21,297 nt of DNA from Anaerolineae bacterium. GTDB taxonomy: Bacteria > Chloroflexota > Anaerolineae > B4-G1. A program made the translations under genes and the position numbers. Positions 1-19,154 of this stretch are shown here, piece after piece (within the stretch, counting starts at the first letter, position 1; each line of letters begins with the position of its first letter). Location of the stretch: the NCBI GenBank assembly GCA_030612185.1, contig JAUWOI010000012.1, positions 1 to 21,297 on the forward strand, given 5' to 3'. The notes under the pieces are model-generated. The model was not told the DNA's origin and did not search any database. It was given only the letters and a program-made list of their open reading frames with translations.

Positions 1-3000
1 AGCACTCACCGCTGCTGAGGTGGCTTGAATGGCCTTCAGTGCCTGTCCGTGTCGCTGCTCCGCTTGGTACAAACGCGCATTCTCGATGGCGATGGCGGCC
101 TGGGCGGCCAGGGACTGGAGAGCTCGCTGATCTTCCTCGTCGAAGGCGCTGCGGTCTGGGTGCTCAACGTTGACGACACCAACAACTTGCTCCCCGATCT
201 TGATAGGCACAGACAATTGCGAATGAACATTGCCGTCGAACTCGATGTAGTCGCGATTTTGAGTGGTGTCCCCAACCAATTCCGGTTTTCCACTCTTCGC
301 AACACGGCCAGTTATACCTATGCGTTCGTCATGCTCCAGGTCTATTTCGCCCACTTTTGCTCTTAGGCCGGGCAAGACATCCCGAGGATAGGACGCGATG
401 AATCTCACCTTGTTGCGATCCACCCATGCCACATGACTGAAATGGATCAATGTCCCGCGAGGTACGGCCAGTCGCCATGCCTGTTCAACAATACGCTCGA
501 GGATCTCATCCAGGGCCAAGGTGCTAGCTACTGCTCGGCCAGCTTCGTGCAGGGCTTGCAAGGCAGTGGCTCGCTTTTGCACTTGCTCGTATAGCTGGGC
601 ATTGCGGATAGCGACGGCTGCCTGGTTGGCGAATAACTCGATGTTCGTGAGTTCGTTGGATGTGAAGCGATGTCGTGACCGGTAGTTAATGAACATTACG
701 CCGACTTTGCGGTCCCCAACCCTGAGCGGAATCCCCATAGACGATCTGATCCCCTCCCGATTCACGAAAGGCCCTTTCATCAAGTTCTCAGGACTCTCAG
801 ACAATGCGTCTTCAGCCACGTGCGCCTTGTCAAGCGCCAAGATATTTCGGATTACAGATGCTTCAGTTACCCGCCCAAGCTTGAGCACTTCCTTGATATC
901 TTGTACACCCACCATCGTCGGGGGGAACCCCAACTTATCACTGTCCTGATCGTAGGTATACAGGGTGACAGCATCACACCTAAGAACGTCTTGTGTTCCC
1001 TTCACAATGGAATCCAAGGTGCTTTGCAAGTCCCCCAGAGTTGTAACCTCAGCAACCACCTTGGCCGCTTCCCTGGCTCTGATGAGTTGGTCCAAGAGGC
1101 GGGCCTTTTTCAGGGCCAAGGCTGCGTGGTTGGCGAAGCTTTCCAATGCCTCCCTGTCCTCACAGGTAAAGCTCCGAGGCTGGTTGTAGTTCACGTACAG
1201 AACGCCCAGCTTCTCGCCTCCGACCTCTAGCGCTATTCCCTGGAAGCTCTCCGCACCAATCTCTCGCAAAAGTTCCAAAGTAGACGGCCCCAGGAACTCA
1301 TATCTGGGATCGGCGATATCCGTGATGCCCACCCAGCCCCGCTTCATTACCGTGTAGGCAGTCCTGCCTGGCTTAGGTTCTTCTTCCCGGAACTTCTCCA
1401 GCAACGGACTTGGGATGCTGTCGGCCACCAATTCGTCCGGGAAAAACTGGCCTCGGATAACATCGTAGGACCAGATGGCCGAAGAATCGGCCCCCAATAC
1501 TTGCCGGGCGCTCCTCACAATCTGCTGCAGGGCTTCCCGTACACCCGCCACTCCAGCCATGGCGTCAGCTGCCCGGCGCATATGCTCCAACTCCTGCATC
1601 CGCCGGGCGTTGTCATAGGCTATGGCCGCCTGGTTGGCGTAAATCTGTAGGGCCTGCTTCTCGGTCTTGGAGAAAAGGCGGGGCTCTTGGAAATGGATCC
1701 ATAACACGCCGATAGCTTTGCCTTGCAGGAGCAGGGGTAGGCAAGCAGCCCCTTTGGCTCCCTGCTCAAGCATTTTGGGATGCAATTCACTCGCCGACTG
1801 CTCTGCGTTGGGGAAAAAGCGGGACTGTCCAGAGCATGCGACTTGCTGCGAGATGCCCCCCTTTCTAATGCTCGTGGTGGCATCCAGTTGTTGCTCGAAA
1901 CCGGCTTGGGTCAGCAGTCGAGGTCGCCCGCGTTCATCAATCAGCAAGACGACGGCTCGCCAGGCTCCGGTGGCCTGGCAGGCTGTGCCCACGATGACCT
2001 GTAGCACTTCCCTGGGGTCATGAGGCGAGATAATAGTATTGCTAGCTTCGTACAGGGACTGGATGTAAGCCTTCCCTTCCTGTGCTTCCCGGTAAAGCTG
2101 GGCGTTGACAATGGCGACCGCGGCGTGGGCGGCGAAGGCCTCCAGTCGCCGGGCGTCGGCGGGGCCGAACTGGCCCGGTTGGGTGCCGTTCACGTTCAGG
2201 AAACCCATTACCTGTTCACACACGTTGATAGGCGCGCCAACGTAGGAGCGTATCCATTCCCTGCCTTCCAACACCACCCAATCTGGGTCGACAGTCGTGT
2301 CCGGGATGACAAGCATCTCTCCCGTCCGTGCCATTTTCAGCAGACCGGGAACCTCGGCGATCGGATAGGTTCTCCCAGCATCCTGCCCTCCCCCGTGCAA
2401 TCCCTCATACCCCCGCCAGCGGACCACTCGGGCGCAGCCATCCTCCACCAACATAATGTTGAAGCCATCACCCACGACGACACGGTTCACTTGCTCCAAG
2501 ATGCGATTCAGCACCTCGTCGAGATCCAGTGTACTGCTGACGACGGCAGCCGCCTCTTCCAGCGCTTCAGCCATCTCCCGCTGCTCTCGCTCCGCCTGGA
2601 AGAGACGACCGTTCTCTATAGCAATGGCAGCCTGTGCCGCAAACGCCTCGGCCAGTCGGACATGTTCCTCGGTATAGAACCCCGGCTGGTGCTTGTCCAA
2701 GGCAATCATCCCGATGAGCTGATCCCCCACCAGCATCGGCACTCCTAGCCAGCCGCGGATATCGGCCTGAGTGTGAGGTTCTTCGGAGAATCCCCGATAT
2801 TCCGCTGGCGCGTCTAAAACGATGAACGACGCTCTCTGTTGCATTACCACCCGGTTAGGGTTGTCGTCATCTATGGAGAAAGAGATACCCAGGATGTCTG
2901 GCAGGTTGGGGAAACCGCGTCCACCGATGATCTCCAGGCAGTCGTCCTTCAGCAGTTGCACTGAAGCGCTGTCATAGGGCACTACTTTCTGAAGTTCGCT

Positions 3001-4506
3001 CAAGATACGCTCAAAAATCCCCTGCTGGTCGAGGGTGGTGGTAAGAGCCAGTGCCGTCTCCCGCAGGGTCTCGGCCTCCCGCCGTCGCCGGGATTCCGCC
3101 TCGAACAGCCGGGCGTTCTTGATGGCCAGGGCAGCCTGGTTGGCCAGGAAAGAAAGAAGATTCACTTCGTGTTCGCCAAAGTGGTGGGGCACGGTGCTAT
3201 GAACGAAAAGGACACCGATGGCCTTTCCCGAGAGCTGAATCGGGACACCGGCCATGGAGCGCACTCCCATCTCTAGCAGAAAAGCCTTGGCTTGCTTGTG
3301 TCGAGTCACATCGGGGATGATCACTGGTTTGTTCTCTGTCATGACAAGGGTGGTAAACCCATCTGGACGAGGTTCCTCGACAATGACAGGTCTCTCAGGA
3401 GTCAGCGCAACTCCTCTCTGAATGTAGCATCCTCTCCTCTCATCCCATATCAGAGCTGTGCTTGTTTCTGCCTGAATCAGAGAGGAGGCACTCTTGGCAA
3501 TGCGGTCGAGGACCTCCTCCAAGTCTAGAGAGGAATTAAGGACCACGCTTAGATCATAGAGAAGCCTCATCTCCTCAGCACGGCGTCCGGTCTTCTCATA
3601 AAGCTGAGCATTTTCCAGGGCAATGGCCGCCTGCCCGGCCAGCAACTGCAAAACCTGCCGTTCGTGCGCACCGAAGGTCTTCTGTCGGGTGCTGTAGGCA
3701 TACAATACACCCAGGTTTTGGGGCTCGCCTGGGATCGGCACGGCGATGAAGGATTTCACGCCAGCCCGACGCAAGTTCTCGTCCACCCTTTCAGCTTTAG
3801 CATCCACATCGGGCATGATGAAGAGTTCGCCAGTTTCTATAATCCTCCTGGTGAGTTCCACATCTCGCAGGTGCCGATGCCATTTCACGCTCACATCACC
3901 TAAAGGGACTACGGGTTCGTACCACACCTGGCCCGTTGCCGGGTTTACACGGGCTACAGCGCAGGCCTCGGCCCCTGCCAGTTTCGGCACGGCCTCAGCG
4001 ATCACTTCCAGCGTCTTTCTGACATCCAGCTCGCTGAGCATGGCTCTGCTAATCTTCAGCGTGGCCGAGAGCAGATCCCGCTCCCGCCGCAGTCGTGCCT
4101 GCTCTGCCGCCATGCGGATAGTCATTCCTAACTCGTCTAAGTTAAGAGGCTTGGCGAGATAGCGATACGCCCCAGCCTGCAGCGCCTCCAACGCCCGGTC
4201 CATCCCCCAGCCGGTGAAGATAATCACCGGGATTTCCGGCCAACGCTCTTTGATCTCTTGCAGAAGCGCAATACCCACGTACTCTGGCTCCTCCTTCGGC
4301 GCCGGAGCTAGAAGGTCATCAATGAGGACCACGTCATAGGGTCGCTCAACTTGTGCGAGCAGGCTTCGTGCCTCTTGGAGATCAGCGGCAGGATCCACCT
4401 CATACCCGTGTTCGTGCCGCAGATGCTTCGCCAGCGGGTCACGCAAACTGATCTCGTCCTCCACCAACAGTACTCGCAATGGATCGTCAGTTACTGGTTG
4501 CTCCAT
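1..4506 (-). CDS. Response-regulator receiver protein with at least eight tandem GAF domains (C-terminus beyond window)
   Basis: Signalling protein, cytoplasmic as far as visible, since no membrane segment is seen. I read all 1502 codons from the ATG at 4506 to the left edge and found no stop. An N-terminal receiver domain (residues about 10-130) has the acidic pair E16/D17, phospho-acceptor D63, the IIFTG strand and the K of YLAKPL. Eight GAF domains follow, each ending in a motif of the type ANQAAIAIENARLY, near residues 292, 462, 627, 798, 961, 1128, 1299 and 1471, a steady period of about 165-172 residues. The start has a GGAGG site 6 nt upstream inside the end of the preceding kinase gene, whose stop lies 2 bp away, so the two are co-transcribed and probably act together. 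The missing C-terminus is probably an output such as a HATPase, SpoIIE phosphatase or GGDEF domain; this cannot be decided here. GAF ligands cannot be read from sequence. Confidence 0.92.
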   Translation of the reverse strand, partial: MEQPVTDDPLRVLLVEDEISLRDPLAKHLRHEHGYEVDPAADLQEARSLLAQVERPYDVVLIDDLLAPAPKEEPEYVGIALLQEIKERWPEIPVIIFTGWGMDRALEALQAGAYRYLAKPLNLDELGMTIRMAAEQARLRRERDLLSATLKISRAMLSELDVRKTLEVIAEAVPKLAGAEACAVARVNPATGQVWYEPVVPLGDVSVKWHRHLRDVELTRRIIETGELFIMPDVDAKAERVDENLRRAGVKSFIAVPIPGEPQNLGVLYAYSTRQKTFGAHERQVLQLLAGQAAIALENAQLYEKTGRRAEEMRLLYDLSVVLNSSLDLEEVLDRIAKSASSLIQAETSTALIWDERRGCYIQRGVALTPERPVIVEEPRPDGFTTLVMTENKPVIIPDVTRHKQAKAFLLEMGVRSMAGVPIQLSGKAIGVLFVHSTVPHHFGEHEVNLLSFLANQAALAIKNARLFEAESRRRREAETLRETALALTTTLDQQGIFERILSELQKVVPYDSASVQLLKDDCLEIIGGRGFPNLPDILGISFSIDDDNPNRVVMQQRASFIVLDAPAEYRGFSEEPHTQADIRGWLGVPMLVGDQLIGMIALDKHQPGFYTEEHVRLAEAFAAQAAIAIENGRLFQAEREQREMAEALEEAAAVVSSTLDLDEVLNRILEQVNRVVVGDGFNIMLVEDGCARVVRWRGYEGLHGGGQDAGRTYPIAEVPGLLKMARTGEMLVIPDTTVDPDWVVLEGREWIRSYVGAPINVCEQVMGFLNVNGTQPGQFGPADARRLEAFAAHAAVAIVNAQLYREAQEGKAYIQSLYEASNTIISPHDPREVLQVIVGTACQATGAWRAVVLLIDERGRPRLLTQAGFEQQLDATTSIRKGGISQQVACSGQSRFFPNAEQSASELHPKMLEQGAKGAACLPLLLQGKAIGVLWIHFQEPRLFSKTEKQALQIYANQAAIAYDNARRMQELEHMRRAADAMAGVAGVREALQQIVRSARQVLGADSSAIWSYDVIRGQFFPDELVADSIPSPLLEKFREEEPKPGRTAYTVMKRGWVGITDIADPRYEFLGPSTLELLREIGAESFQGIALEVGGEKLGVLYVNYNQPRSFTCEDREALESFANHAALALKKARLLDQLIRAREAAKVVAEVTTLGDLQSTLDSIVKGTQDVLRCDAVTLYTYDQDSDKLGFPPTMVGVQDIKEVLKLGRVTEASVIRNILALDKAHVAEDALSESPENLMKGPFVNREGIRSSMGIPLRVGDRKVGVMFINYRSRHRFTSNELTNIELFANQAAVAIRNAQLYEQVQKRATALQALHEAGRAVASTLALDEILERIVEQAWRLAVPRGTLIHFSHVAWVDRNKVRFIASYPRDVLPGLRAKVGEIDLEHDERIGITGRVAKSGKPELVGDTTQNRDYIEFDGNVHSQLSVPIKIGEQVVGVVNVEHPDRSAFDEEDQRALQSLAAQAAIAIENARLYQAEQRHGQALKAIQATSAAVSA

Positions 4507-4508
4507 CT

Positions 4509-6854
4509 CTATCCTCCGCTAGCGCGGTGATCGTGCTCTGGCGTTCCAGAGCCCGGCAACTCGATTAAGAAGGTGGTCTCAAAGAGTATCACGCTCCGTT
4601 CCACTGCGATTTGCCCCCCCATAGACTCCGCGATGCTACGGGCGACGAACAGGCCCAGCCCGGTTCCTCTTGGCCGGGTGGAGAAACTCAGGGCGAAGAT
4701 GCTCTCCCATAGCCGCCGATGGATGCCAGGACCGGTGTCTGTGAAGCGTATCTTGATGGGAAGGACGTCGTCCTCCGGCTCCCGTGAACTGGTGACCTCA
4801 AGCGCCCCCCAGCCGTCGGAGAGCCGTTCCATCTTCGGCGACACTTGCTGAACAGCGTTGAGCATCACGTTGGAGAAGACTTGCTGCAACCGCGCAGAGC
4901 TGCCTAACGCTTTAGGCAGATCTGGAGCCAGTTTGGTGGTGATGTGCACCTTATGCTTCCGGGCGGTGGGACGCAGCAGCAGTTCGGCACGCCGGATTAC
5001 CTCGTTGACATCAATGTCTTCTTGCTCCTCAGAGCGGGTCAATTCTCGAAGGGAAACCGCGACGCGCTTCAAGTCCAAGGCGGTTGCCAATACTCCATCT
5101 ATCGCCCCACCTATCTTCGTGTGAGTCAGCGGATCGGCTGGGGTGATATCTTCTCTGGCGTCGGGCAACTGCCCATATTCGGCGCGGAGATTGCGGATCT
5201 GGATCTCGAGACCAGAGATCTTGTTGTAGACTTCGTGGCCAAAGCCTGCGGTCAGTTCCCCAGTCAGGAGAAAGCGGCTGATGTCCTGCGCCCGCCGCTC
5301 CAGCAGATCGCTTTCCAGAGCCACACCGAGTAGAGTAGCTATCGCCCAGGCGTCCCGCAGCCGGTAGCGGGAGAAAGCATCTGGCTCCCGGTGGAACAGG
5401 AAGAGCGCATAGTGAGCCTGCCCCTCAGCCTGGATTGGTACCCCGATGCACGACTCAAAAGGAAGCAGGGTCAGCAACTTGCCGAACCTGCGTTGGGCCT
5501 TATGGGACACATGGAGTTCGAAGATGTCCCCACCTTCGTGAATCAAGTCTTTGACTGGGCTCCCGTCTAGCGAGTAAACCGCATCATGGTTCAGGGGCAA
5601 CATGCCGACCTGAGCAGTGATGGAAACCTTACGGGAGATCGGATCCAAATAGAAGACAATCGCGGTCTCGGCGCGGGTAAGAGTGCTCAGTTCCCGAAGC
5701 CCTGCCTCGAGCCGGCTGCGCAGGGAAGCACTGCCACGCATCTCACGAGACAGAATACGGAAGGAATCAACTGCATCATTCTGGATCGGCCGGGAAGCCG
5801 TCAGAGGCCGGCCCACCAACGTCTCCCCTTGCGTGATCCTGGTCAGGCCCTCCTCGATTTCGCCCACATCCAACGGCTTCGCAAAAACCTCGGCGACTCC
5901 CAGTTCCTCCAGTTCCTGGCCTCGTTCGACAATCTGCTCTGGAACGCTGATCACAGCCACCGGGCACTCAGGGCTAGACTTCCTCACCCGGTGGATAAGG
6001 GCCACCCCATCCTCACCAGAGAGATCAATGTCTACCAACACCAGGTCGAACCTGGTTTCCTTTAGATGAGTCAGCGCCTGAATCGGTGACTCTACACCCT
6101 CCGCTTTGCATCCCTGGCGACGCAACCATTCCACCAGAGGATCGAGCACCGTTTTGTCATCATCCACCACCAAGACTCGCCCCAGGAAACTCAGACCGCC
6201 CACAGGCTCCTGGACTTCCTCCGAGTCTGGCCTATCTTCCTCCGGCTCTTCTTCGATTTGCCTAGGAGAAGTGAGATGCTGCGCGAATTCGATGGCCCGA
6301 ATCTGCTGTTCCATGCGCCGCCGGATACTCAGTCGCACTCTCTCGGTACGGCGGTTGATACTGGTGATGACTGCCTCAACCCGGTCGCCAACCCACAGCA
6401 ATTCCTCGGGCTCCTCCATCCCCCACAAGGCCATCTCGTGTAAGGAGACGAAGCCATCCACCCCAGGGATGATCTGAACGAATGCCCCATGGGGGCTCAA
6501 GGCTTTTACCGTGCCACTGACAACGTCGCGTTCCCGGTATTGGCGCTCGAACTGCTTCCATGGATCAGGCAGGAGTCTTCGCACGCTCAGTTCCATCGTG
6601 TAGCCCGGTGCGGGTAGAGCCACGACGACCGCCCGAATCGCTTCCCCCTGTGAGATAATCTGGCGGGGGTCTACGTCACCCTCGAGTGAGAGTTCCCGGC
6701 GGCGGATGTAGGTCCGGCTACCGTCGGTGAGGCGGACGAAGATACCATAGGGGAGCACACTCTCCACTTCCCCGGTGACTTGCTGTCCTGTAGTATACGC
6801 CTGTTTCACCTCAAGTGTGTCTCCATCAGATCGCGCGGTCTCAGAACAAGCCAA
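4509..6854 (-). CDS. Hybrid histidine kinase with two N-terminal S1 RNA-binding domains, receiver, GAF and HATPase
   Basis: Predicted soluble sensor kinase of 781 residues. Two S1-type OB-fold domains lie at about 22-92 and 108-180; the second has the classic pattern GTVKALSPHGAFVQ, GVDGFVSLHE, and VGDRVEAVITSI with RVRLSIRR. An acidic linker (about 200-218) follows. The receiver domain (225-340) has D231-D233, acceptor D275, S303 and K326. A GAF-like domain spans about 375-520. The kinase core has H540 in GFGHEVYNKISGLE, an N-box around N662-N666, DTGPGI at 706-711 and GTGLGL at 730-735, so all catalytic motifs look intact. The start is a TTG about 70 nt below an extended -10 promoter; the ribosome site there is weak, so an internal GTG near residue 16 is an alternative. 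S1 domains normally bind RNA in ribosomal protein S1, PNPase or IF1. Their fusion to a kinase suggests RNA or nucleic-acid sensing, but that is inference. Confidence 0.9.
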   Translation of the reverse strand: MACSETARSDGDTLEVKQAYTTGQQVTGEVESVLPYGIFVRLTDGSRTYIRRRELSLEGDVDPRQIISQGEAIRAVVVALPAPGYTMELSVRRLLPDPWKQFERQYRERDVVSGTVKALSPHGAFVQIIPGVDGFVSLHEMALWGMEEPEELLWVGDRVEAVITSINRRTERVRLSIRRRMEQQIRAIEFAQHLTSPRQIEEEPEEDRPDSEEVQEPVGGLSFLGRVLVVDDDKTVLDPLVEWLRRQGCKAEGVESPIQALTHLKETRFDLVLVDIDLSGEDGVALIHRVRKSSPECPVAVISVPEQIVERGQELEELGVAEVFAKPLDVGEIEEGLTRITQGETLVGRPLTASRPIQNDAVDSFRILSREMRGSASLRSRLEAGLRELSTLTRAETAIVFYLDPISRKVSITAQVGMLPLNHDAVYSLDGSPVKDLIHEGGDIFELHVSHKAQRRFGKLLTLLPFESCIGVPIQAEGQAHYALFLFHREPDAFSRYRLRDAWAIATLLGVALESDLLERRAQDISRFLLTGELTAGFGHEVYNKISGLEIQIRNLRAEYGQLPDAREDITPADPLTHTKIGGAIDGVLATALDLKRVAVSLRELTRSEEQEDIDVNEVIRRAELLLRPTARKHKVHITTKLAPDLPKALGSSARLQQVFSNVMLNAVQQVSPKMERLSDGWGALEVTSSREPEDDVLPIKIRFTDTGPGIHRRLWESIFALSFSTRPRGTGLGLFVARSIAESMGGQIAVERSVILFETTFLIELPGSGTPEHDHRASGG

Positions 6855-7321: not shown

Positions 7322-10300
7322 TTAGATAGGCACCATCTTACGCAGCGGCGCTGGCACTAGCGGCGCCAGCATCTCCCATTCCTCCGGCGTGAGGACGCGC
7401 AGGAGCACCAGCGCCACAGGGTAGACGACCAGACCGGCCAGAAGCGCCAGCGGGCGGCTGTAAGCCGCCACTGCCCAGGTCGCCGCTCCCATCGCCAGCC
7501 CGGCTAGCATAGGCCGGCCCAGCGTCCGCACCCAGCCCATTGGTCCCAGGTGGCGGCGCAGGTCGGCGTAGAACAGCAGCACCAACAGCAACTCCCCGCC
7601 AATGATGATCCACGCGGATGCGATGTAACTGAACGTCCGCACGAAAAGCAAATTCGCCACTATGGTGAAGACCACGCGCGCGCCGGAGGCCAGGAGCACG
7701 TACCGCTGGCGGTTGAGGGCAATGAGCACGTAGTTGGTCAGGCTGTTGATCCAGCCGAAGAGGATAGACCAAACCAACAATCGCAGAATGACCGCGCCGT
7801 AGGGCAGGAACGCTCCTCCGCCAAGCAAACCCACCAGCACCGTTGACAGCAGCGTGACGAGCACGGCCACCGGCAGCGCAACCAGTGTCAGTAACTTGAC
7901 CGACAACCGGTACGACCGCTGCAGCCCGGCCCGGTCTTGAGCAGCCTGGCGCGACATCACCGGGAAGACAGCGAAGGTGAAAACAGCAGGAATGATATTG
8001 AGCGCGTCCACCCACTTGCGCGCAGCGCCGTACCAGCCCACCACTTCGTCGCCCTGCAATTGCTGTAGGAGCACCCCGTTGACGCCAGTGAAGAGCGCCT
8101 GCAACAGCAGCGAGACCATCAGCGGCCAACTTTCGGCCAACATCGTGCGCTGCAAGCGCCACACAATGCGACCCTCCGCGCGCGGCAGATCGGCCCAAAT
8201 CAGCCGCCGCGCCAGCAGCGCCAGAATCGCCAGCGTCGCCACGTTGGTCAGAATGGAGGCCCCCGCCAGCCCGACGATCCCTATCCCGCCTACCAGCACC
8301 GGCACCCAGAGCATGACCTTGATGATGGTGGTCACGGTTTGGATGGCAGCGGGGTACTCGTGTTTCTCGCACGCACGGAAGAGCGCCGCCAGGCCGTTGG
8401 CTACACTGCCCGGCAGCAGCCCGACGTAGAGCAGCACAACCGCCCACACCGTCTCAGTCGCCAGCGGCTCGCCCAACGCCTGCCGCCCGGCCAGAAAACC
8501 CCCCAGTGCCGGTACCACCGCCACGACGAGCAACAGACGCAACACCATCGTATTGACAAACATCTGCCGGGCACGGGCACGGTCACGGGCCACCTCGCGC
8601 ATGAGGTACATATCCAGACCGAAGTTGGCGATGATGTCGAACCAGAGATATATATAGATCGCCGTGTCGAAGCGACCGGTGCCCGCCGGCCCCAGGATGC
8701 GGGCCGCCAGCGCGGCGAGGGCCAGGTCAATGGCCCGGTTGAAGAGGTTGATGATGATGGGAGCGATGGAGTTCTTCGCCACCCGCCGGACGGTGCTTGC
8801 GTCGTCCTCCTCACGGTAGAAGAAGCGCCACAGGTAGAGCCCTGTCAGGAAGAGCACCATCATCCCGGCGATGAAACTGATGAACGCGCCCACTTTCACG
8901 CTGTCGGGGCTGTACTTGAAGCGCACTGTCCATGCGCCTGGCTTTTCCAGCAGCACGCCGCGGAAAGTGCCGTTTACGCGGTAAATGAGGACTTGCTCCT
9001 CAGCGTTTTCACCGCTCCCTTGTGGCCGCACGAATGCCTTCCAGCCGGGGAAGTAGGAGTCGGTCAACACCAGCCATTCGGCTCCGTCAGTCTGCACATC
9101 AACTTCGACCTCGTTGATGGTATAGCGGGTCACATTTTGAGCCGTGGCGGTCCCTGGCTGCGGCGCATAGAAATCCAACGGGTACATGCCAGGATCGAGA
9201 ATGACATAGTTGCGAGGGTCGTGATCCTGTACCACGCTCGCTAGATCGTCCGGCTCCATCGCCGCCAGGAGCGGCAACGTGTAGGCTCGTGGCATCACAG
9301 CCAGGTTCTCGTAGACCCGCACCGTATCATCTTGATACACCAGTTGATACTTGGGGTTGGGAATCTCCACCTCGGTGATGACGTACTTGACGTTGAGCAG
9401 GTCGGTGAGCGGGCTGTCGAGGCTTGACCATTCGCTGAAGGATGCGATGCGGTTAACCAGGAGTTCGTCCTGCTCCTCGATGAGTGCCATGTAGTCGGCG
9501 TATTGGCGGGTGAAGAGCGAGTCGTAGCCCGCGATATACTGGAGGCCATAGAACATCCCCACGTTGGCGTTCATCGTCTTGGTGGTGCCCGGTGGGGTGA
9601 AGGTGGCGTAGCGCCAGAGGGAGGTATCCTGTTGCAGGAACTTGACCACCGGCGGTGTGTAGTCCAGCAGTGCCGGGTCCACAGCGGGGTTGAAACCCGC
9701 GCCAAAGGTGACAAAGTCCAGCACCAGCAACCCGACCACCAGGAACTCCCACACAGGTCTGCCCTGAGCGATGTCCTGAGCCTGTCGAAGGGCGCGGTCG
9801 AAGGGCTGGCGGCGGACGAAGATCGGGCAGCGGCTCACGCGCAGGACGATGCCGGTCCCGGTCAGTAACAGGCCAAAGATGGCGACCCACTTGAACTCGT
9901 AGGAGTAGAAAGCGCGATGGTCGGGGAAGGCAGTGGGGGCCAACGCCAGCGACTGGAACACTCGCTCTACCAGCGGCTCAATCCGGGTGAAGAAGACCCG
10001 GCTGAGAGCCAATCCCGCCATCGTGACCACTCCACCCCAGAAGGCTAGCGCGGCGAGAAGTGTCTCCAGGGAGAAGGGGGCGTTGAGCAGAAGAATATTA
10101 GAGATTAGAGATTGGAGATTGGAGGTTGGAGAGGAGATTGGAGATTGGAGATTACGCCCTTGCTCCCCTGCCCCTCTCTCCTTGTCTCCTTGTCTCCTTG
10201 TCTCCTTGTCTCCCCTGCTCCTCTGCAGCGCCTCAATTCCAAAACCGGCCAGGATGGCGACTGAGAGCGTGAGCGGGAAAACCCAGCGGAAGGGGGAATG

Positions 10301-11632
10301 GGACTGCTTGAGCAACGGCAGCGTGTACACGAGGGCATAGAGCGGCGTGCCGAAGATGCAACCGAGGGAGAAGAGAGACAGCAATGTGAAAAAGGGAATG
10401 TACGGATGGCGGAACCAACCAACCAACCAACTAACCACCTTGTTCGTTCGTTGGTTGGTTAGCACCGCGATGGCCGCCAGGAACAGCGGCAATAGCCCCA
10501 GATATGCTCCACCCTCGACGTAGTTCTTGACGCCCCAGTAAATGTACTGCCCGTCGGGGACCGTCCGCGCGGGAGTCCATTGCCAGGTAAAGAGGTCAAA
10601 GTAGCCGTGGTGGGCCGGGTTGCCGAAGAAGTTGGGGACGCCAAAGGCGATCAGCCGCCGCGGGGGGTAGGCCCAACCCAGTACTTGCTCGAGACTCGCT
10701 GCCGCTTCCCCGCCACGGAAACTCCCGGCGACCACCTCGTAGAGCGGCACAAACTGCACCGCCCCCAGCGCCAGGCTCAGGGCGAGCATCAGCGCCAGCC
10801 AGAGGGCCGGGCGACGACAGCCAACCAGCCAACCAACTAACCATCTTTTGTTGGTTGGTTTGTTAGTTGGTTGGTTTATGAGTCGCCACAGCGCATAGGC
10901 CCCGGTGATCAGCAAGACAAAATAGGTGTTCTCGGCATGACCGGCCAGCATCTGGCAGCCCAGTCCCAGCGCGCCCAGGAGTGCCCAGGGCAGCGTCGCT
11001 GGCTGCCGCCCTAGCGCCGGTCGTTGTTGTATGATCAGTTCGACCATCGCCAGGATGAACGGCAGCCACGACGCAGCGGCGATGATCATCGGGTGCGGGA
11101 CCGACGATACGACCATGAAGCCGCTGAGTTGGAAGGTGATCCCGGCGATCAATCCACCCAGCCTTCGGATACCCAACACGCGGGCGAACAGATACGCAAA
11201 GACCCCGGCCAGCCCCAGTTGCAGCCAGGCGAACACGCCGTAGGCTCGCCACAGCGGGAGGACATAGAAGACGATGCTAAGAGGATAAAGCGCTGAGTGC
11301 TGCCCATTGGCCAGGAAAGGGTGACCGGCGAAGATGTAAGGATCCCAGAGTGGCAACTCCCCGTTGTGGATCGCCTCGACCAGGAACTGCTTCCAGGCAT
11401 AGTTCTGCAGAATCAGATCGGAGACCAGGTGGTTTTGGGGAAAGGTTACTCCCAGGACTTCGGCGAGCTCAGTCGAGCCGTCAGCGGCTGCTGCCTGGTA
11501 TGGCTCGAACAGGAAGAGGTTGTCGGCTGGCAACAGCGTTTTGTGGCCCAGGGCGACGGGGGCGAACAGCAGCAGGGGCAACAAGAGCAGCAAGATGAGA
11601 ATGCCCAAATCGGGCAGTGCTTTGCGGATCAT
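7322..11632 (-). CDS. Giant membrane protein: YfhO-like domain fused to a polysaccharide flippase domain
   Basis: Predicted inner-membrane protein of 1436 residues. The first part (to about residue 940) resembles the YfhO family: an N-terminal membrane segment, then [29 protein letters not shown], many hydrophobic helices, and a soluble region ending in [15 protein letters not shown] and [16 protein letters not shown] with a final helix. YfhO proteins take part in lipid-linked sugar transfer onto cell-wall polymers. The second part (about 948-1436) resembles Wzx/MATE-type flippases ([26 protein letters not shown], about a dozen helices). The start chosen is the ATG at 11632, whose ATGA overlaps the glycosyltransferase stop, implying translational coupling; an in-frame upstream start at 11686 would lie inside that gene. 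Several low-complexity linkers (for example the QPTNKPTNK and [12 protein letters not shown] segments) are encoded by simple-sequence repeats inserted in frame. The fusion could be two genes joined; the frame itself is open throughout. Confidence 0.85.
9773..9792. repeat. Short GTCCTGAGCCTGTCGAAGGG-type repeat element inside the YfhO-like region
   Basis: The sequence CCTGAGCCTGTCGAAGG (9775-9791) matches, from memory, a short dispersed element found in many environmental genomes. A partial echo (GCCCTGAG) precedes it and GGTCGAAGGG follows at 9797-9806. It is read through in frame on the minus strand as a charged loop ([14 protein letters not shown]). Whether it is repeated in this genome cannot be tested from one window. 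Confidence 0.45.
10099..10215. repeat. Two adjoining simple-sequence repeat tracts within the coding sequence
   Basis: On the plus strand 10099-10154 repeats units of the type GAGATTGGAGATTG with small variations. About 10174-10215 repeats CTCCTTGT four to five times. On the minus strand the frame stays open and gives the hydrophilic insert with [12 protein letters not shown] and [19 protein letters not shown], between two hydrophobic segments of the YfhO-like domain. The tracts differ sharply in composition from the surrounding gene, which suggests insertion or slippage expansion. Confidence 0.8.
10412..10461. repeat. AACC/GGTT inverted simple-sequence element, copy 1
   Basis: The plus strand reads several AACC units (10413-10429), then ACTAACCACC, then GTTCGTTCGTTGGTTGGTT to 10460. 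The arms are complementary and could form a hairpin. It is translated in frame on the minus strand as [18 protein letters not shown] second copy of the same design lies about 400 bp away at 10821-10877. Confidence 0.75.
10821..10877. repeat. AACC/GGTT inverted simple-sequence element, copy 2
   Basis: The plus strand starts with CCAACCAGCCAACCAACTAACC and, after a short ATCTTTT centre, returns as GTTGGTTGG units with one TTAG interruption. The arms pair with each other. It is in frame within the YfhO-like domain and encodes [11 protein letters not shown] followed by WLVGWLVG. It has the same composition and symmetry as the copy at 10412-10461, so both probably come from one element type. Confidence 0.75.
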
Positions 11633-12372
11633 ACGGCCAACCGGTCGCCAGGTCGCAGGTGGCGATGGCGCCAGCGCACCTCCCATGCCCGTAGCGCCGC
11701 CTCAATCTTGACCAGCATCGTCATCTTGGACTGGCCAACACGCCGGTCCTCGAAGTAGATGGGAATCTCCAGCACACGGTAGCCCAGTCGCTCGGTCACG
11801 TAGGCAATCTCGACCTGGAAGATGTAGCCCTGCGAGCGGATACGGCTCAGGTCAATGCCGCGCAGCGTCTCTGCCCGCCAGCACTTGAAGCCGGCGGTAA
11901 CGTCCTGGACATCACATCCCAGGATCAGCCGGGTGTAGACACTGTTGGCCCACCAGGAGAGCAGCCAGCGGCCCCAGCTCCAGCGCTCATCCGTCTTGCC
12001 GCCCTGAACGTAGCGGGAACCGACGACTACGTCGTAGTTTTGGATGTGCTCCAGGAATTGTGGGACGTACCTGGGAGAATGAGAGAAGTCGCAGTCCATC
12101 TGGACGATGGCATCGGCACCGTGCTCCAGAGCCCAGCGGAATCCATCCACATAGGCCCTGCCCAGACCACGAGGGCCTGTGCGGTGTAACACGTGCAACC
12201 GACCTGGGTACTGAGTGGCTAGTTCGTCGGCGGTGTGACCGGTGCCATCGGGCGACTCATCATCCACGATCAGGATACTTAGGGCAGGAATGCCCAGGCC
12301 AAGTAGCGCCTCGGTCATAGGCCTGACGTTTTCGGCCTCATTGTAGGTGGGGATGACGATGATCGGTTTCAC
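11629..12372 (-). CDS. DPM1-type family 2 glycosyltransferase (polyprenyl-phosphate sugar synthase)
   Basis: Predicted to move a sugar from a nucleotide sugar to polyprenyl phosphate on the inner face of the membrane. It has 247 residues, the usual size for soluble dolichyl-phosphate mannose synthase-like enzymes. Visible GT-A motifs: [11 protein letters not shown] at the N-terminus, [10 protein letters not shown], the metal-binding DCD in [10 protein letters not shown] near residue 94, GSRYVQGG, and the late motif VTAGFKCWR. No C-terminal membrane helices are present. The start is a GTG at 12372 with AGGGA 7 nt upstream. It lies 65 bp after the response-regulator gene, and its stop overlaps the ATG of the YfhO/flippase gene (ATGA). 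The pair fits a route in which a lipid-linked sugar is made, then flipped and transferred. Sugar and acceptor are unknown. Confidence 0.9.
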
Positions 12373-14553: not shown

Positions 14554-15822
14554 CTATCGTTCCTCGATCAGAATTGTCTCGATTATATCGCCTGGTGGCA
14601 GACCAGCGTCCTGGCTGGGGTCACGAGGCGTGATGCTCTCGACTACGTCCATACCCTCAATGACCCGCCCGATGATGGTGTAACTACTGTCGAGTTGCGG
14701 GAGGGCATCGTAGGTGATGAAAAACTGGCTGCCGATGCTACTGGTGCCCGGTCCACCGCTAGCCATACCCACCACCCCCGCTTCATCGTAGGTGAGCGTG
14801 GGCACAATCTCGTCGTCACAGCGGTAACCGGGAGAACCCATACCGCTGCCGGTGGGATCACCAGCCTGGGCCACGAAATCGGGGATGACGCGGTGGAAAG
14901 TCACGCCGTCGTACCAGCCCTCCTGTGCCAGAAAGACAAAACTGTTGACGTTGACAGGAACCTGGTCGGCGTATAACTCAATGACGATGTCGCCGTGCTC
15001 AGTGCGGATGGTGGCTACATAATCCTTGTCCGGGTCTATGACCTGCGGCGGAGGTGCGGTATACATGCGGTCTTTCAGGGTGAGCAGGTTGATGAAGGAC
15101 TCGATCATGCCGAACCCTCCAAACGCCTGGGTTGGATAGAAGACGTTGTTGATTACGTAGGTCGGAGTGGCCATCTGGCCATACTGGCTGTAATCCTCGT
15201 AGTCGGCCATGATCTTCTCCCGATAGACGTGGTCAGCCAGTTCCTGGGCAAAGCGGTCGGCGTCGAGACTCAGTTCCTCGGCATACTCGACCAATAGCGT
15301 CTCTAATTCGTCTTCGGAGAGGCTGTGCCATTCCCCCTGACGTTCGTACAGCAGGTCGTGCATCTCCCAGAACTTGCCCTGGGCGCTGGCAGCCTCAACG
15401 GCCTCGGCGGTGATGACAGCCTTGTCATGTATGCTGATCAGCGGGAGGTGACGGTAGACGAAACGAATCTCATCGCCGTACCTCTCCGCTAGGAATTCGC
15501 GCATGATGGCCAGCCCGGAGCAAGCCGGGCATTGGAAGTCAGCGTATTCGATGAAGGTGATGGGGGCATCGGCGGGTCCGTGAATGTGATCCTCCTCCGT
15601 CACCGGCGGAATGCGAGACTCGACCGGAAAGTCGAACGGCTCCGCCACGCAAGAGGCTGGGCCGGAGGGGGTTGCGCTTGCAGGCGGCGCAGCAGCAGCC
15701 GTCTCTGGGGTAGACGTAGGTGACGGCAGCACCGTTGGCGTTGGGCTCGCTGATTCTCCGCTGCATCCGGCAACCAGCCCCAGTAACAGAACAGTCAATA
15801 GTAGCGCGGTTTTGCGCATCAT
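14554..15822 (-). CDS. Lipoprotein with DsbA-like thioredoxin domain fused to a cyclophilin-type peptidyl-prolyl isomerase
   Basis: A 422-residue predicted lipoprotein. Residues 1-20 form a signal with lipobox LVAGC (lipidated C20). A Ser/Thr/Pro/Ala-rich linker runs to about 60. Residues about 75-250 are a DsbA-type thioredoxin domain with CPAC at 98-101, an alpha-helical insert and cis-proline P220 in MATPTYV. Residues about 265-422 are a cyclophilin with FHRVIPDF (R311), Q319, GSQFFIT (365-370) and the usual end VIEGMDVVESI. It would act outside the membrane, joining disulfide chemistry to proline isomerisation in folding of exported proteins. ATG at 15822 or 15819; AAAGGAGACC lies just upstream. 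It is monocistronic or first in a unit, with an extended -10 promoter at 15851-15859. Confidence 0.9.
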   Translation of the reverse strand: MMRKTALLLTVLLLGLVAGCSGESASPTPTVLPSPTSTPETAAAAPPASATPSGPASCVAEPFDFPVESRIPPVTEEDHIHGPADAPITFIEYADFQCPACSGLAIMREFLAERYGDEIRFVYRHLPLISIHDKAVITAEAVEAASAQGKFWEMHDLLYERQGEWHSLSEDELETLLVEYAEELSLDADRFAQELADHVYREKIMADYEDYSQYGQMATPTYVINNVFYPTQAFGGFGMIESFINLLTLKDRMYTAPPPQVIDPDKDYVATIRTEHGDIVIELYADQVPVNVNSFVFLAQEGWYDGVTFHRVIPDFVAQAGDPTGSGMGSPGYRCDDEIVPTLTYDEAGVVGMASGGPGTSSIGSQFFITYDALPQLDSSYTIIGRVIEGMDVVESITPRDPSQDAGLPPGDIIETILIEER

Positions 15823-17203: not shown

Positions 17204-17377
17204 TTAGAGAACCGCCAGCGCTTGCTCTAGGTCAGCCTTGAGATCATCCAAATCCTCGATGCCGACGGCATAGCGCACCAACCCTTCTGGAATGCCCGCC
17301 GCAACACGTTCTTCCTCAGTACACTCAACGTGGCTAGTTACTGCCGGAGGACCGACGAGGTGGGAGTCATTACATGT
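17204..17377 (-). pseudogene. 3' remnant of a Cys/Met-metabolism PLP enzyme (cystathionine gamma-synthase/lyase family)
   Basis: A minus-strand frame, one base off from the GntR gene, reads HLVGPPAVTSHVE, then TEEERVAAGIPEGLVRYAVG, then IEDLDDLKADLEQALAVL and TAA at 17204. The GLxRxxVGIEDxxDLxxDLxQAL ending is diagnostic for the C-terminus of this PLP family, whose members have about 380-400 residues. Only about 50 codons survive and there is no start or lysine region. The reading frame meets TGA at 17378-17380, and its 5' part lies within the 3' end of the GntR gene. This points to a deletion or recombination that joined the GntR gene to the tail of a lost enzyme gene. Confidence 0.75.
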
Positions 17378-18009
17378 TCAATGGCAGTCCGCTGCGCCCG
17401 TTCAGGATCATGGGAACAGACAGCTTCCAGTAGAGCCTGGTGCTGTCCGGGGTAGGCGACCACATCGCTAGGTCGGGTGACAATCATGAATAACCTGATC
17501 TGTAACTTCAGGTCCTCTAAGGTGCGCTGCAATTGTTTGTGCCTGGCACATTCCCAAATGCGGCTGTGGAACGTGATGTCAAGGTCAATCAGTTGCCGGA
17601 CGTCACCTTCCTGGTCGGCGGTGTCCATGCGCTTGATGACATCTTCTAGAAAACGAACATCCGTGGGCTCAATGTTGGAGGAGGCCAGCCTGGCTGCCAG
17701 TCCTTCCAGTACACTGCGAAGAGTTGCTACTTCCCAGAGGTCTTTCTTATTCCATTTTTCCACGAACGTGCCCTTGCGCGGCACCTGGACAGCGAGCCCG
17801 TGTTTCGCCAGTTTGGCCAACGCCTCACGCACCGGAGCCCGGCTGACGCCCATTTTCTGGGCCAGTTCCGTTTCGTTCAGTCGCTCGCCCTCTTTTATGG
17901 CACCGGTCAGGATGGCATCGCTCAAGACCTGAAAGACTTCTTCGGTCAAGGTTTTGTGTCGAATTTCCATCGGCAGCGCGTTTGCTAAACTGGTTTCTCC
18001 CTCATACAT
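17338..18009 (-). CDS. GntR-family transcriptional regulator, FadR subfamily (FCD ligand domain)
   Basis: A 223-residue DNA-binding regulator. The winged helix-turn-helix (about 17-80) shows the typical GERLNETELAQKMGVSRAPVREALAKLAKHGL and the wing RKGTFV. The FCD domain (about 90-215) keeps the metal-type residues: D-x-x-x-H in DLDITFHSRIWE, H in the GQHQALLEAV helix, and H of AIEHV. Such regulators respond to organic acids and usually repress their own and neighbouring genes. The ATG at 18009 has CAGGAG about 11 nt upstream; M14 is an alternative. The last ten residues overlap the PLP-enzyme remnant and may be foreign to the original protein. It is preceded by a near-consensus promoter and palindrome (18105-18150). 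Confidence 0.9.
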   Translation of the reverse strand: MYEGETSLANALPMEIRHKTLTEEVFQVLSDAILTGAIKEGERLNETELAQKMGVSRAPVREALAKLAKHGLAVQVPRKGTFVEKWNKKDLWEVATLRSVLEGLAARLASSNIEPTDVRFLEDVIKRMDTADQEGDVRQLIDLDITFHSRIWECARHKQLQRTLEDLKLQIRLFMIVTRPSDVVAYPGQHQALLEAVCSHDPERAQRTAIEHVMTPTSSVLRQ

Positions 18010-18121: not shown

Positions 18122-18150
18122 ATTATACCCCACTTTGCGGCAAATGTCAA
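18122..18150 (-). promoter_or_regulatory. Consensus sigma70-type promoter for the GntR gene
   Basis: The minus strand has TTGACA (18145-18150), exactly 17 nt of spacer and TATAAT (18122-18127): both hexamers perfect. Transcription would begin near 18115, inside the palindrome, about 105 nt before the ATG at 18009. Confidence 0.85.
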
Positions 18151-18287: not shown

Positions 18288-18316
18288 TTGACTTCACACG
18301 GAAAATGTGGTATATT
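18288..18316 (+). promoter_or_regulatory. Near-consensus promoter for the structured RNA
   Basis: TTGACT (18288-18293), 17-nt spacer and TATATT (18311-18316): five of six in each hexamer at ideal spacing. Transcription should start at about 18323, three nt before the 5' strand of the 12-bp helix. No protein-coding frame follows. Confidence 0.8.
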
Positions 18317-18322
18317 GATTAC

Positions 18323-18494
18323 AGTTTAAGCCCCAAGAGATCGAAAAGCAGAAACGGAAAAGGAACTAGTCTTTAAAAATCTGATAGCCGGTGAAAATCT
18401 GGAAGATAGAAAATTCAACCAGATGGGAGGCTAACAGAAAAACAAAGAATAGGAACTAATCTGAAGAAGCCGAGTAAGTCACTTGGGGCTTAAC
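18323..18494 (+). ncRNA. Candidate structured noncoding RNA, 6S-like rod architecture, family not recognised
   Basis: About 172 nt, purine-rich, without a plausible open frame. By hand, the ends pair perfectly: TTAAGCCCCAAG (18326-18337) with CTTGGGGCTTAA (18482-18493), then an A-A mismatch and three more pairs. A bubble of about 24 and 25 nt follows. The arm above has CTA/TAG, a G-A mismatch, TCTTT/AAAGA (18370-18374, 18444-18448), a 6x6 A-rich loop, CTG/CAG, an A-A mismatch, TAGCC/GGCTA (18385-18389, 18429-18433), an internal loop, ATCTGG/CCAGAT (18397-18402, 18419-18424) and a 16-nt apical loop. A closing stem, central bubble and long arm are the hallmarks of 6S RNA, which traps RNA polymerase, but I see no diagnostic primary sequence. 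It is not RNase P, tmRNA or SRP RNA by motif. It could also be a new class. Confidence 0.7.
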
Positions 18495-18499
18495 AGTGT

Positions 18500-18544
18500 A
18501 GATAAGAAAAAGGCCTTGATCAACTCCAATTGATCAGGGCCTTT
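18500..18544 (-). terminator. Intrinsic terminator of hpt, shared with the convergent RNA gene
   Basis: AAAGGCCTTGATCAA (18509-18523) and TTGATCAGGGCCTTT (18530-18544) form a 15-bp stem with one G-T wobble and a 6-nt loop. On the minus strand it begins 14 nt after the hpt stop and ends in a T-rich run (18500-18511), a classic terminator. On the plus strand only TTT follows, so it may also stop the RNA gene, less efficiently. Confidence 0.85.
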
Positions 18545-18557
18545 GGCTGCTTCTGAC

Positions 18558-19154
18558 TCAGGTCTGCGCACCCAGGGGAAGTCGCCGCCGGGTGATGGTT
18601 TCTTCTTTCAGCGCGCCCACGAATGGCAGGTTCCGATACCGCTCGTCGTAGTCCAGGCCATAGCCGACGACGAACTTGTCGGGCAACACAAAGCCGGTGT
18701 AGGCAACGTCCAGGTCAAATAGGCGTGTCCGAGGTTTGTCGAACAGCACGCAGACTCGCAGGCTGGCCGGATCACGGGTTTCGAGGCTGCGCAGGATGTA
18801 GCGCAACGAAAGGCCGGTGTCAATCACGTCCTCTACAAAGAGCACGTGCCGTCCCTCAATGGAGGTCTCCAGATCTTTGGTAAAACGCACCGCGCCTTGT
18901 ATCTGTGTAGGGGAACCGTAACTGGTAATACCGATAAAATCCACGCCGATGGGAATAGTGATGGCGCGCACCAGATCGGCCATAAAGACAAAGACCCCGC
19001 GCAGCACGCCCACCAGGAGCGGTTCCTTGCCGGTGTAATCGGTTGAAATCTGCGCCCCCAACTCAGTAACGCGAGTCTGGAGTTCCTCTGCTGTGATCAA
19101 CACCTTGGCGATGTCGTCCATCAAGCCATTGTTGACCAGGTTTTTATTCCTCAT
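18558..19154 (-). CDS. hpt: Hypoxanthine phosphoribosyltransferase
   Basis: Purine salvage enzyme that joins hypoxanthine or guanine to PRPP, giving IMP or GMP, in the cytoplasm. It has 198 residues, a little over the usual 175-185. Motifs: KVLITAEELQTRVTELG at the start, LLVGVLRGVFVFMADLVRAI, DFIGITSYG, the PRPP loop VEDVIDTGLSL, and FVVGYGLDYDERYRNLPFVGAL with the usual purine-binding region. The ATG at 19154 is chosen because GGAGGAACCGG precedes it and it overlaps the upstream gene by 11 bp; an internal ATG at 19121 lacks a ribosome site. It is followed by a strong terminator. Confidence 0.95.
   Translation of the reverse strand: MRNKNLVNNGLMDDIAKVLITAEELQTRVTELGAQISTDYTGKEPLLVGVLRGVFVFMADLVRAITIPIGVDFIGITSYGSPTQIQGAVRFTKDLETSIEGRHVLFVEDVIDTGLSLRYILRSLETRDPASLRVCVLFDKPRTRLFDLDVAYTGFVLPDKFVVGYGLDYDERYRNLPFVGALKEETITRRRLPLGAQT

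What the first reader, a model, noticed from the sequence alone, without database searches (positions are those of the whole stretch)
18288..18544. Unrecognised structured RNA gene with its own strong promoter
The sequence shows a near-consensus plus-strand promoter at ideal spacing, then 172 nt with no reading frame, whose two ends form a perfect 12-bp helix. Inside is a long arm with symmetrical mismatches and A-rich internal loops, and a central bubble of about 24/25 nt. 6S RNA is known to have a closing stem, a central bubble and a long arm. I recognise no family sequence signature, so this is either a divergent 6S RNA or a new class. It is the strongest candidate for something undescribed in this window.
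Basis: partly seen in the sequence, partly recalled or inferred. Interest (0 to 1): 0.82.

Follow-up and report, generated by a model that had tools for sequence, protein, structure and literature searches.

The report
Rod-shaped RNA gene, possibly 6S-like
A stretch beside a purine-salvage gene in a Chloroflexota contig looks like a real stand-alone RNA gene that folds into one long rod, possibly a distant version of a known RNA that shuts down RNA polymerase, but no relatives could be found to prove it.

Summary
A near-consensus plus-strand promoter (18288-18316) ends 7 nt before the predicted start of a roughly 172-nt stretch without a long reading frame. It folds into one unbranched rod: MFE -52.8 kcal/mol, z about -7; 0 of 200 and 0 of 500 shuffles fold as well. 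Eight of 10 internal loops are symmetric (0 of 500 shuffles) and 19 of 20 mismatches in them are purine-purine. This is good single-sequence evidence for a structured, trans-acting RNA gene. No Rfam family matches. The first large bubble is 13/14 nt, not 24/25. My best mechanism is a 6S-type promoter mimic that holds RNA polymerase. General shape and length fit. There is no 6S sequence match, the layout differs from the Rfam 6S model, a structure distance to E. coli 6S does not single the locus out, and the simulated release hairpin is no better than chance. Covariation, the decisive test, could not be done: no genome is held for the window and the scans I could make gave no homologue. 6S membership is unproven; an unnamed lineage-specific class is nearly as likely. 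A MITE-like insertion (CAGT flanks) is a weaker rival.

The parts
18288..18316 (+). sigma-70-type promoter, TTGACT-17 bp-TATATT, extended -10 TG
   Evidence: 10 of 12; one of 4 sites >=10/12 in the window, the only one with TG
18323..18496 (+). structured RNA, predicted start about 18323 (7 nt after the -10 hexamer); 3' end uncertain
   Evidence: fold -52.8 kcal/mol, z -7.04; mean pair probability 0.92-0.99 in the 11 helices; transcription itself is inferred
18326..18337 (+). 5' strand of the 12-bp closing helix
18482..18493 (+). 3' strand of the 12-bp closing helix; 18339-18341/18478-18480 add 3 bp beyond an A.A mismatch
18342..18354 (+). 5' side of the bubble next to the closing stem (13 nt: 6-nt loop, 2-bp helix, 5-nt loop)
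18464..18477 (+). 3' side of that bubble (14 nt); has AGUA opposite GAA and G.A next to A.G in the 5x5 part
   Evidence: motif reading is inference
18355..18463 (+). long apical arm: helices of 2-6 bp separated mostly by symmetric purine loops, capped by an 8-nt loop
   Evidence: arm z -6.1, 0 of 500 shuffles (stretch folded was 18355-18466); loops listed
18509..18544 (.). 15-bp hairpin between the RNA and hpt; T-run on the minus strand (hpt terminator), weak on the plus strand
   Evidence: fold; sequence; one search's terminator scan did not list it
18558..19154 (-). hpt, hypoxanthine phosphoribosyltransferase, convergent to the RNA
   Evidence: PF00156; relatives named Chloroflexota at 86% and 81% identity
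17338..18009 (-). GntR/FCD regulator, divergent from the RNA
   Evidence: PF00392 and PF07729

Best explanation
The locus is an independent RNA gene. Its promoter makes a transcript of about 170-220 nt that folds into a single unbranched rod: a 12+3-bp closing stem, a 13/14-nt bubble, and an apical arm whose short helices are separated mostly by symmetric purine loops. The most likely mechanism is promoter mimicry, as in 6S RNA. RNA polymerase holoenzyme would take the bubble for an open promoter and be held there; short transcripts started on the 5' side of the bubble would unwind the closing stem and release it. Shown: sequence, promoter match, fold and its significance. Inferred: transcription, polymerase binding, start of a product RNA near 18341-18342, and release. 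My probabilities: real structured RNA gene about 0.85; 6S-type mechanism 0.38 (lowered from 0.4 after one search showed that the structure distance does not single out the locus).
For: Rod with z about -7, 11 helices at 0.92-0.99. Promoter placed so that the predicted start falls 3 nt before the closing stem. Length within the 153-237 bp that PMC7726162 gives for 6S genes, and that paper states, citing Wehner 2014, that 6S genes occur in Chloroflexi (one passage seen). 6S is described as a rod with a central bubble between a closing and an apical arm with short internal loops, and with limited sequence identity (PMC8876501, passages). The named hpt relatives seen are Chloroflexota. Simulating a 14-nt product RNA at 14 start positions (nt 19-32), the freed 3' strand forms a new 6-bp hairpin for 6 of 14 (nt 19-24).
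Against: No Rfam 6S match at E<=10, although E. coli 6S is found at 139.8 bits. Closing part has 15 pairs and then the bubble; the Rfam consensus has 17 pairs, a 12/13-nt loop and 10 more pairs before its central bubble. Tree-edit distance to the E. coli 6S fold is 81 against a mean of 148 for 486 window segments, but an unrelated segment at 1741 (+) also has 81 and others 85-87, so it is not discriminating. The release hairpin is not significant: z -1.0, 32 of 200 shuffles as good. Unpaired bases are 51 of 74 A here against 22 of 61 in E. coli 6S. I saw no convincing -10-like element in the bubble's 3' side (own reading). No homologue, no transcript data.
Confidence: 0.38

Rival explanations
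1. A lineage-specific, so far unnamed structured RNA with another job, for example a rigid rod that scaffolds or sequesters a protein, the symmetric loops with likely sheared G.A pairs being binding sites.
For: No Rfam family. Regular loop make-up: 8 of 10 internal loops symmetric, 19 of 20 mismatches purine-purine, G.A next to A.G in the 5x5 loop and flanking A.A in the 3x3 loop; AGUA opposite GAA in the 6x7 loop recalls the bulged-G (sarcin-ricin) motif (recalled, not tested).
Against: Its distribution is unknown because no relative was reached; a 6S RNA is to be expected in most such genomes (inference) and would explain the general shape without a new class.
Confidence: 0.36
2. A miniature inverted-repeat element (MITE): 12-bp terminal inverted repeats flanked by a target duplication, by chance next to a promoter.
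For: The 12-bp ends are flanked by CAGT on both sides, 18322-18325 and 18494-18497 (sequence printed).
Against: The end sequence occurs in the window only at these two ends, with up to 2 mismatches allowed. The promoter sits at the right distance to start at the element's edge; with 4 such sites in 42.6 kb of strand this is about 5 in 10,000 by chance (own estimate, five positions allowed). Decay of a palindrome would give mixed mismatches; 19 of 20 are purine-purine: P 3e-7 if all mismatches are equally likely, 0.002 given this base composition. A 4-bp match has a chance of 1 in 256.
Confidence: 0.1
3. Not a functional RNA: an A-rich intergenic stretch that happens to fold well.
For: No homologue or transcript seen. 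Four of 3522 window segments fold as well or better once corrected for GC. Much of the A-richness of the loops follows from composition: A share of unpaired bases 0.69 against a shuffle mean of 0.61 (4 of 500 reach it).
Against: 0 of 500 shuffles fold as well or have as many symmetric loops, 6 of 500 give a single rod, 0 of 500 reach the purine share of unpaired bases (0.89, mean 0.81); the promoter is in register.
Confidence: 0.07
4. A retron msr-msd RNA: the end repeats would be the a1/a2 arms.
For: End repeats of about 12 bp and a length of about 170 nt (features of retrons recalled).
Against: A single rod without side hairpins. Adjacent genes are GntR/FCD and hpt, and none of the 13 window proteins scanned with Pfam shows a reverse transcriptase (the long protein at 1-4506 was not scanned).
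Confidence: 0.01

Closest known systems
6S RNA (ssrS, Rfam RF00013)
   Same: Stand-alone gene of similar length, single rod, closing stem, bubble, long apical arm with short internal loops; low sequence conservation is expected.
   Different: No match to the Rfam model; 15 closing pairs before the first bubble where the model has 17 + 10 pairs around a 12/13-nt loop; loops mostly A and symmetric; no significant release hairpin.
Ms1 RNA of Actinobacteria
   Same: Structured RNA without 6S sequence likeness, first proposed as 6S from its predicted structure (PMC9130861, passages).
   Different: About 300 nt, with extra hairpins at both ends, binds core polymerase; the present RNA is about 172 nt with no extra 5' hairpin.
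Aquifex aeolicus 6S RNA
   Same: About 160 nt, showing that short 6S RNAs exist (PMC9130861, passage); a bubble-collapse helix is proposed for its release in place of the E. coli-type 3' hairpin (PMC4227106 and PMC8876501, passages).
   Different: Its sequence was not compared here.

Membership tests
6S RNA | Match to the Rfam 6S covariance model | tested here: not met
   No hit at E<=10 in 651 bases; positive control E. coli 6S 139.8 bits. In the control set the model rings in 5 of 14 genomes, over cut-off in 4; the other 9 are not named there and may lack 6S, so this says little on sensitivity.
6S RNA | Length about 150-240 nt, rod-shaped, single hairpin | tested here: met
6S RNA | Central bubble between closing stem and apical arm | tested here: inconclusive
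   13/14-nt bubble, split by a 2-bp helix; by position it could equally correspond to the outer 12/13-nt loop of the Rfam consensus
6S RNA | Rearrangement on product-RNA synthesis | tested here: inconclusive
   New 6-bp hairpin for 6 of 14 simulated starts, but no better than chance (32 of 200 shuffles)
6S RNA | Binding to the primary sigma holoenzyme and templating of product RNAs | not testable with these tools
   needs biochemistry
6S RNA | Conserved structure across relatives (covariation) | not tested
   No homologous DNA reached: the genome-collection scan gave one unrelated locus; 8 viral scans and blastn of plasmids and phages gave none
MITE | Terminal inverted repeats with target-site duplication | tested here: met
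   12-bp ends, CAGT on both sides; weak, 1 in 256
MITE | Multiple copies in the genome | not tested
   No genome held; one copy of the ends in the window

The most novel reading that the evidence does not exclude
A new class of rod-shaped RNA in Chloroflexota, not homologous to 6S. It would be built from symmetric purine loops at short intervals, and either mimics a promoter independently of 6S or serves as a rigid protein scaffold.
Probability: 0.3. Interest if true: 0.75.

Novelty: new variant of a known kind. Interest (0 to 1): 0.5.

Why it matters
If it is 6S, it shows how far the promoter-mimic rod can drift from the Rfam model in this phylum and would give a seed for finding 6S there. 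If it is not, it is a candidate for a further class of structured RNA. [quoted passage not shown]

Tried and rejected
Homologues. A pattern of the closing stem in the genome collection gave one locus, a Bacteroidota MAG (L001). There the stem lies in a longer inverted repeat with other hairpins, and I take it as a chance match. In hindsight that single scan would have been better spent on the neighbouring proteins. Four patterns from the RNA in viral contigs gave 0 matches. GntR alone gave no relative; hpt alone 2 loci; 20 aligned hpt proteins 2 loci; 19 aligned GntR proteins 6 loci; best identity 49%. I did not look for the RNA in those 10 loci. Distant blastn against plasmids (6 records) and phages (13 records) gave only matches of 21-40 nt at E >= 0.08. 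The kinase protein against plasmids gave nothing above 25% identity among the 10 of 921 records listed and no route to a related genome.

Rfam weak hits: SpF66 (E 0.012, 20.5 bits, cut-off 42) covers only the terminator hairpin; Clostridium-PBP and three snoRNA families are far below cut-off. Rejected.

CsrA-sequestering RNA: 5 GGA against 4.3 expected from composition. Rejected. Retron RNA: see rivals. Leader of hpt or GntR: excluded by orientation; antisense action on hpt was not tested.

Structure distance to 6S: first looked favourable, then shown not to discriminate.

Full report
Setting. No whole genome is held for the window. The two relatives of hpt that carry an organism name in the 120 listed of 8000 are Chloroflexota, at 86% and 81% identity (P0143, P0185). 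The RNA lies between a GntR/FCD regulator (17338-18009, minus) and hpt (18558-19154, minus). It is read on the plus strand, away from GntR and towards hpt, so it is the leader of neither.

The observation. The promoter TTGACT-17-TATATT with extended TG (18288-18316) is 10 of 12, one of 4 sites at >=10/12 in the window on both strands and the only one with TG. Its predicted start, about 18323, is 3 nt before a perfect 12-bp helix formed by the two ends (18326-18337 / 18482-18493). The fold has -52.8 kcal/mol, z -7.04, 0 of 200 shuffles; z -7.07, 0 of 500 in my own shuffles. Without the 12-bp helix it is z -4.1, and the arm alone z -6.1, each 0 of 500. The 11 helices have mean pair probability 0.92-0.99, and the fold changes little between 25 and 60 C.

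The anatomy. One rod without branches, as in 6 of 500 shuffles. Eight of 10 internal loops are symmetric (shuffle mean 2.0; 0 of 500 reach 8). Of 20 opposed mismatches in the symmetric loops 19 are purine-purine (14 A.A, 5 G.A or A.G) and 1 is A.C; 65% would be expected from composition, P 0.002. Unpaired bases are 51 A, 15 G, 5 U, 3 C of 74; the purine share of 0.89 is reached by 0 of 500 shuffles (mean 0.81) and the A share of 0.69 by 4 of 500 (mean 0.61), so part of this is plain composition. Purine loops suggest that the plus strand is the RNA, but the energy does not tell: the reverse complement folds at -52.9.

A control against me. Corrected for GC alone, the locus is not the most stable in the window: it lies at -2.96 SD and 4 of 3522 segments (168 nt, 12-nt steps, both strands) are as low or lower; the four most stable listed lie within the coding ORF at 7322-11686. 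A coarser scan likewise put a coding segment first and the minus-strand segment at 18323 second.

The bubble next to the closing stem is 13/14 nt, made of a 6x7 loop, a 2-bp helix and a 5x5 loop; 24/25 nt would dissolve 8 predicted pairs. The hairpin 18509-18544 is followed by a T-run on the minus strand only; it probably ends hpt transcription and only weakly that of the RNA, so the RNA's 3' end is uncertain.

6S or not. For: length, rod, a bubble, and a statement, citing Wehner 2014, that 6S genes occur in Chloroflexi (PMC7726162, one passage; Wehner 2014 itself is not held). Against: no Rfam match at E<=10 with a working positive control. The layout also differs: the Rfam consensus has 17 pairs, a 12/13-nt loop, 10 pairs and then its 16/13-nt central bubble, while here 15 pairs are followed by a 13/14-nt bubble, which could correspond to either loop. 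Tree distance to the E. coli 6S fold is 81 (mean of 486 window segments 148), but an unrelated segment at 1741 (+) also has 81 and others 85-87, so this is no support. Blocking a 14-nt product RNA that starts at nt 19-24 lets the 3' strand form a new 6-bp hairpin (6 of 14 starts tested), as the same simulation gives the 9-bp hairpin of E. coli 6S (the rearrangement is described in PMC8876501, passage); but the hairpin is no better than in shuffles (z -1.0, 32 of 200). The Rfam model may be limited: authors list 6S among RNAs expected to escape detection (PMC4227106, passage). So: it may work like 6S; that it is a 6S is not shown.

MITE. The 12-bp ends are flanked by CAGT on both sides. The in-register promoter, the purine mismatches and the single copy of the ends in the window speak against it; genome copy number is untested.

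Limits. None gave a homologue, and that says nothing about conservation in Chloroflexota genomes, which I could not reach. Relatives of both neighbours at 95% identity or more are in the protein collection, so material for the test should exist. Papers were seen as search listings or passages only; none was read whole. My literature searches were not aimed at this exact RNA, and I make no claim that it is absent from print.

Noticed in passing
window 18122-18150 (-): A perfect 12-of-12 consensus promoter TTGACA-17-TATAAT upstream of the GntR/FCD gene.
   Followed up: no
window 1-4506 (-): A very long protein (1502 aa to the contig end, cut there) with a receiver-like start and repeats about 495-520 nt apart, probably GAF domains by reading (not scanned with Pfam); DNA repeat family D1 has 7 copies here.
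   Followed up: partly
window 4509-6854 (-): A fusion of S1 RNA-binding domain(s), a receiver, GAF and histidine-kinase ATPase in one protein, to my knowledge an odd combination.
   Followed up: no
window 7322-11686 (-), repeats at 10097-10213, 10413-10437, 10847-10876: A 1454-aa ORF with a weak YfhO match (no stretch significant alone) and a polysaccharide-flippase part, holding short tandem repeats of 7, 8 and 4 bp that leave the frame open.
   Followed up: no
window 14554-15822 (-): A thioredoxin/DsbA-like domain fused to a cyclophilin-type prolyl isomerase.
   Followed up: no
L001 2858-3014: A Bacteroidota MAG holds a seemingly unrelated 157-bp inverted-repeat element with the same 11-bp ends and internal hairpins, fold z -8.7.
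   Followed up: partly
window 18342-18347 / 18471-18477: CGAAAA opposite CGAGUAA could form a bulged-G (sarcin-ricin type) motif, AGUA/GAA; motif recalled, not modelled.
   Followed up: no
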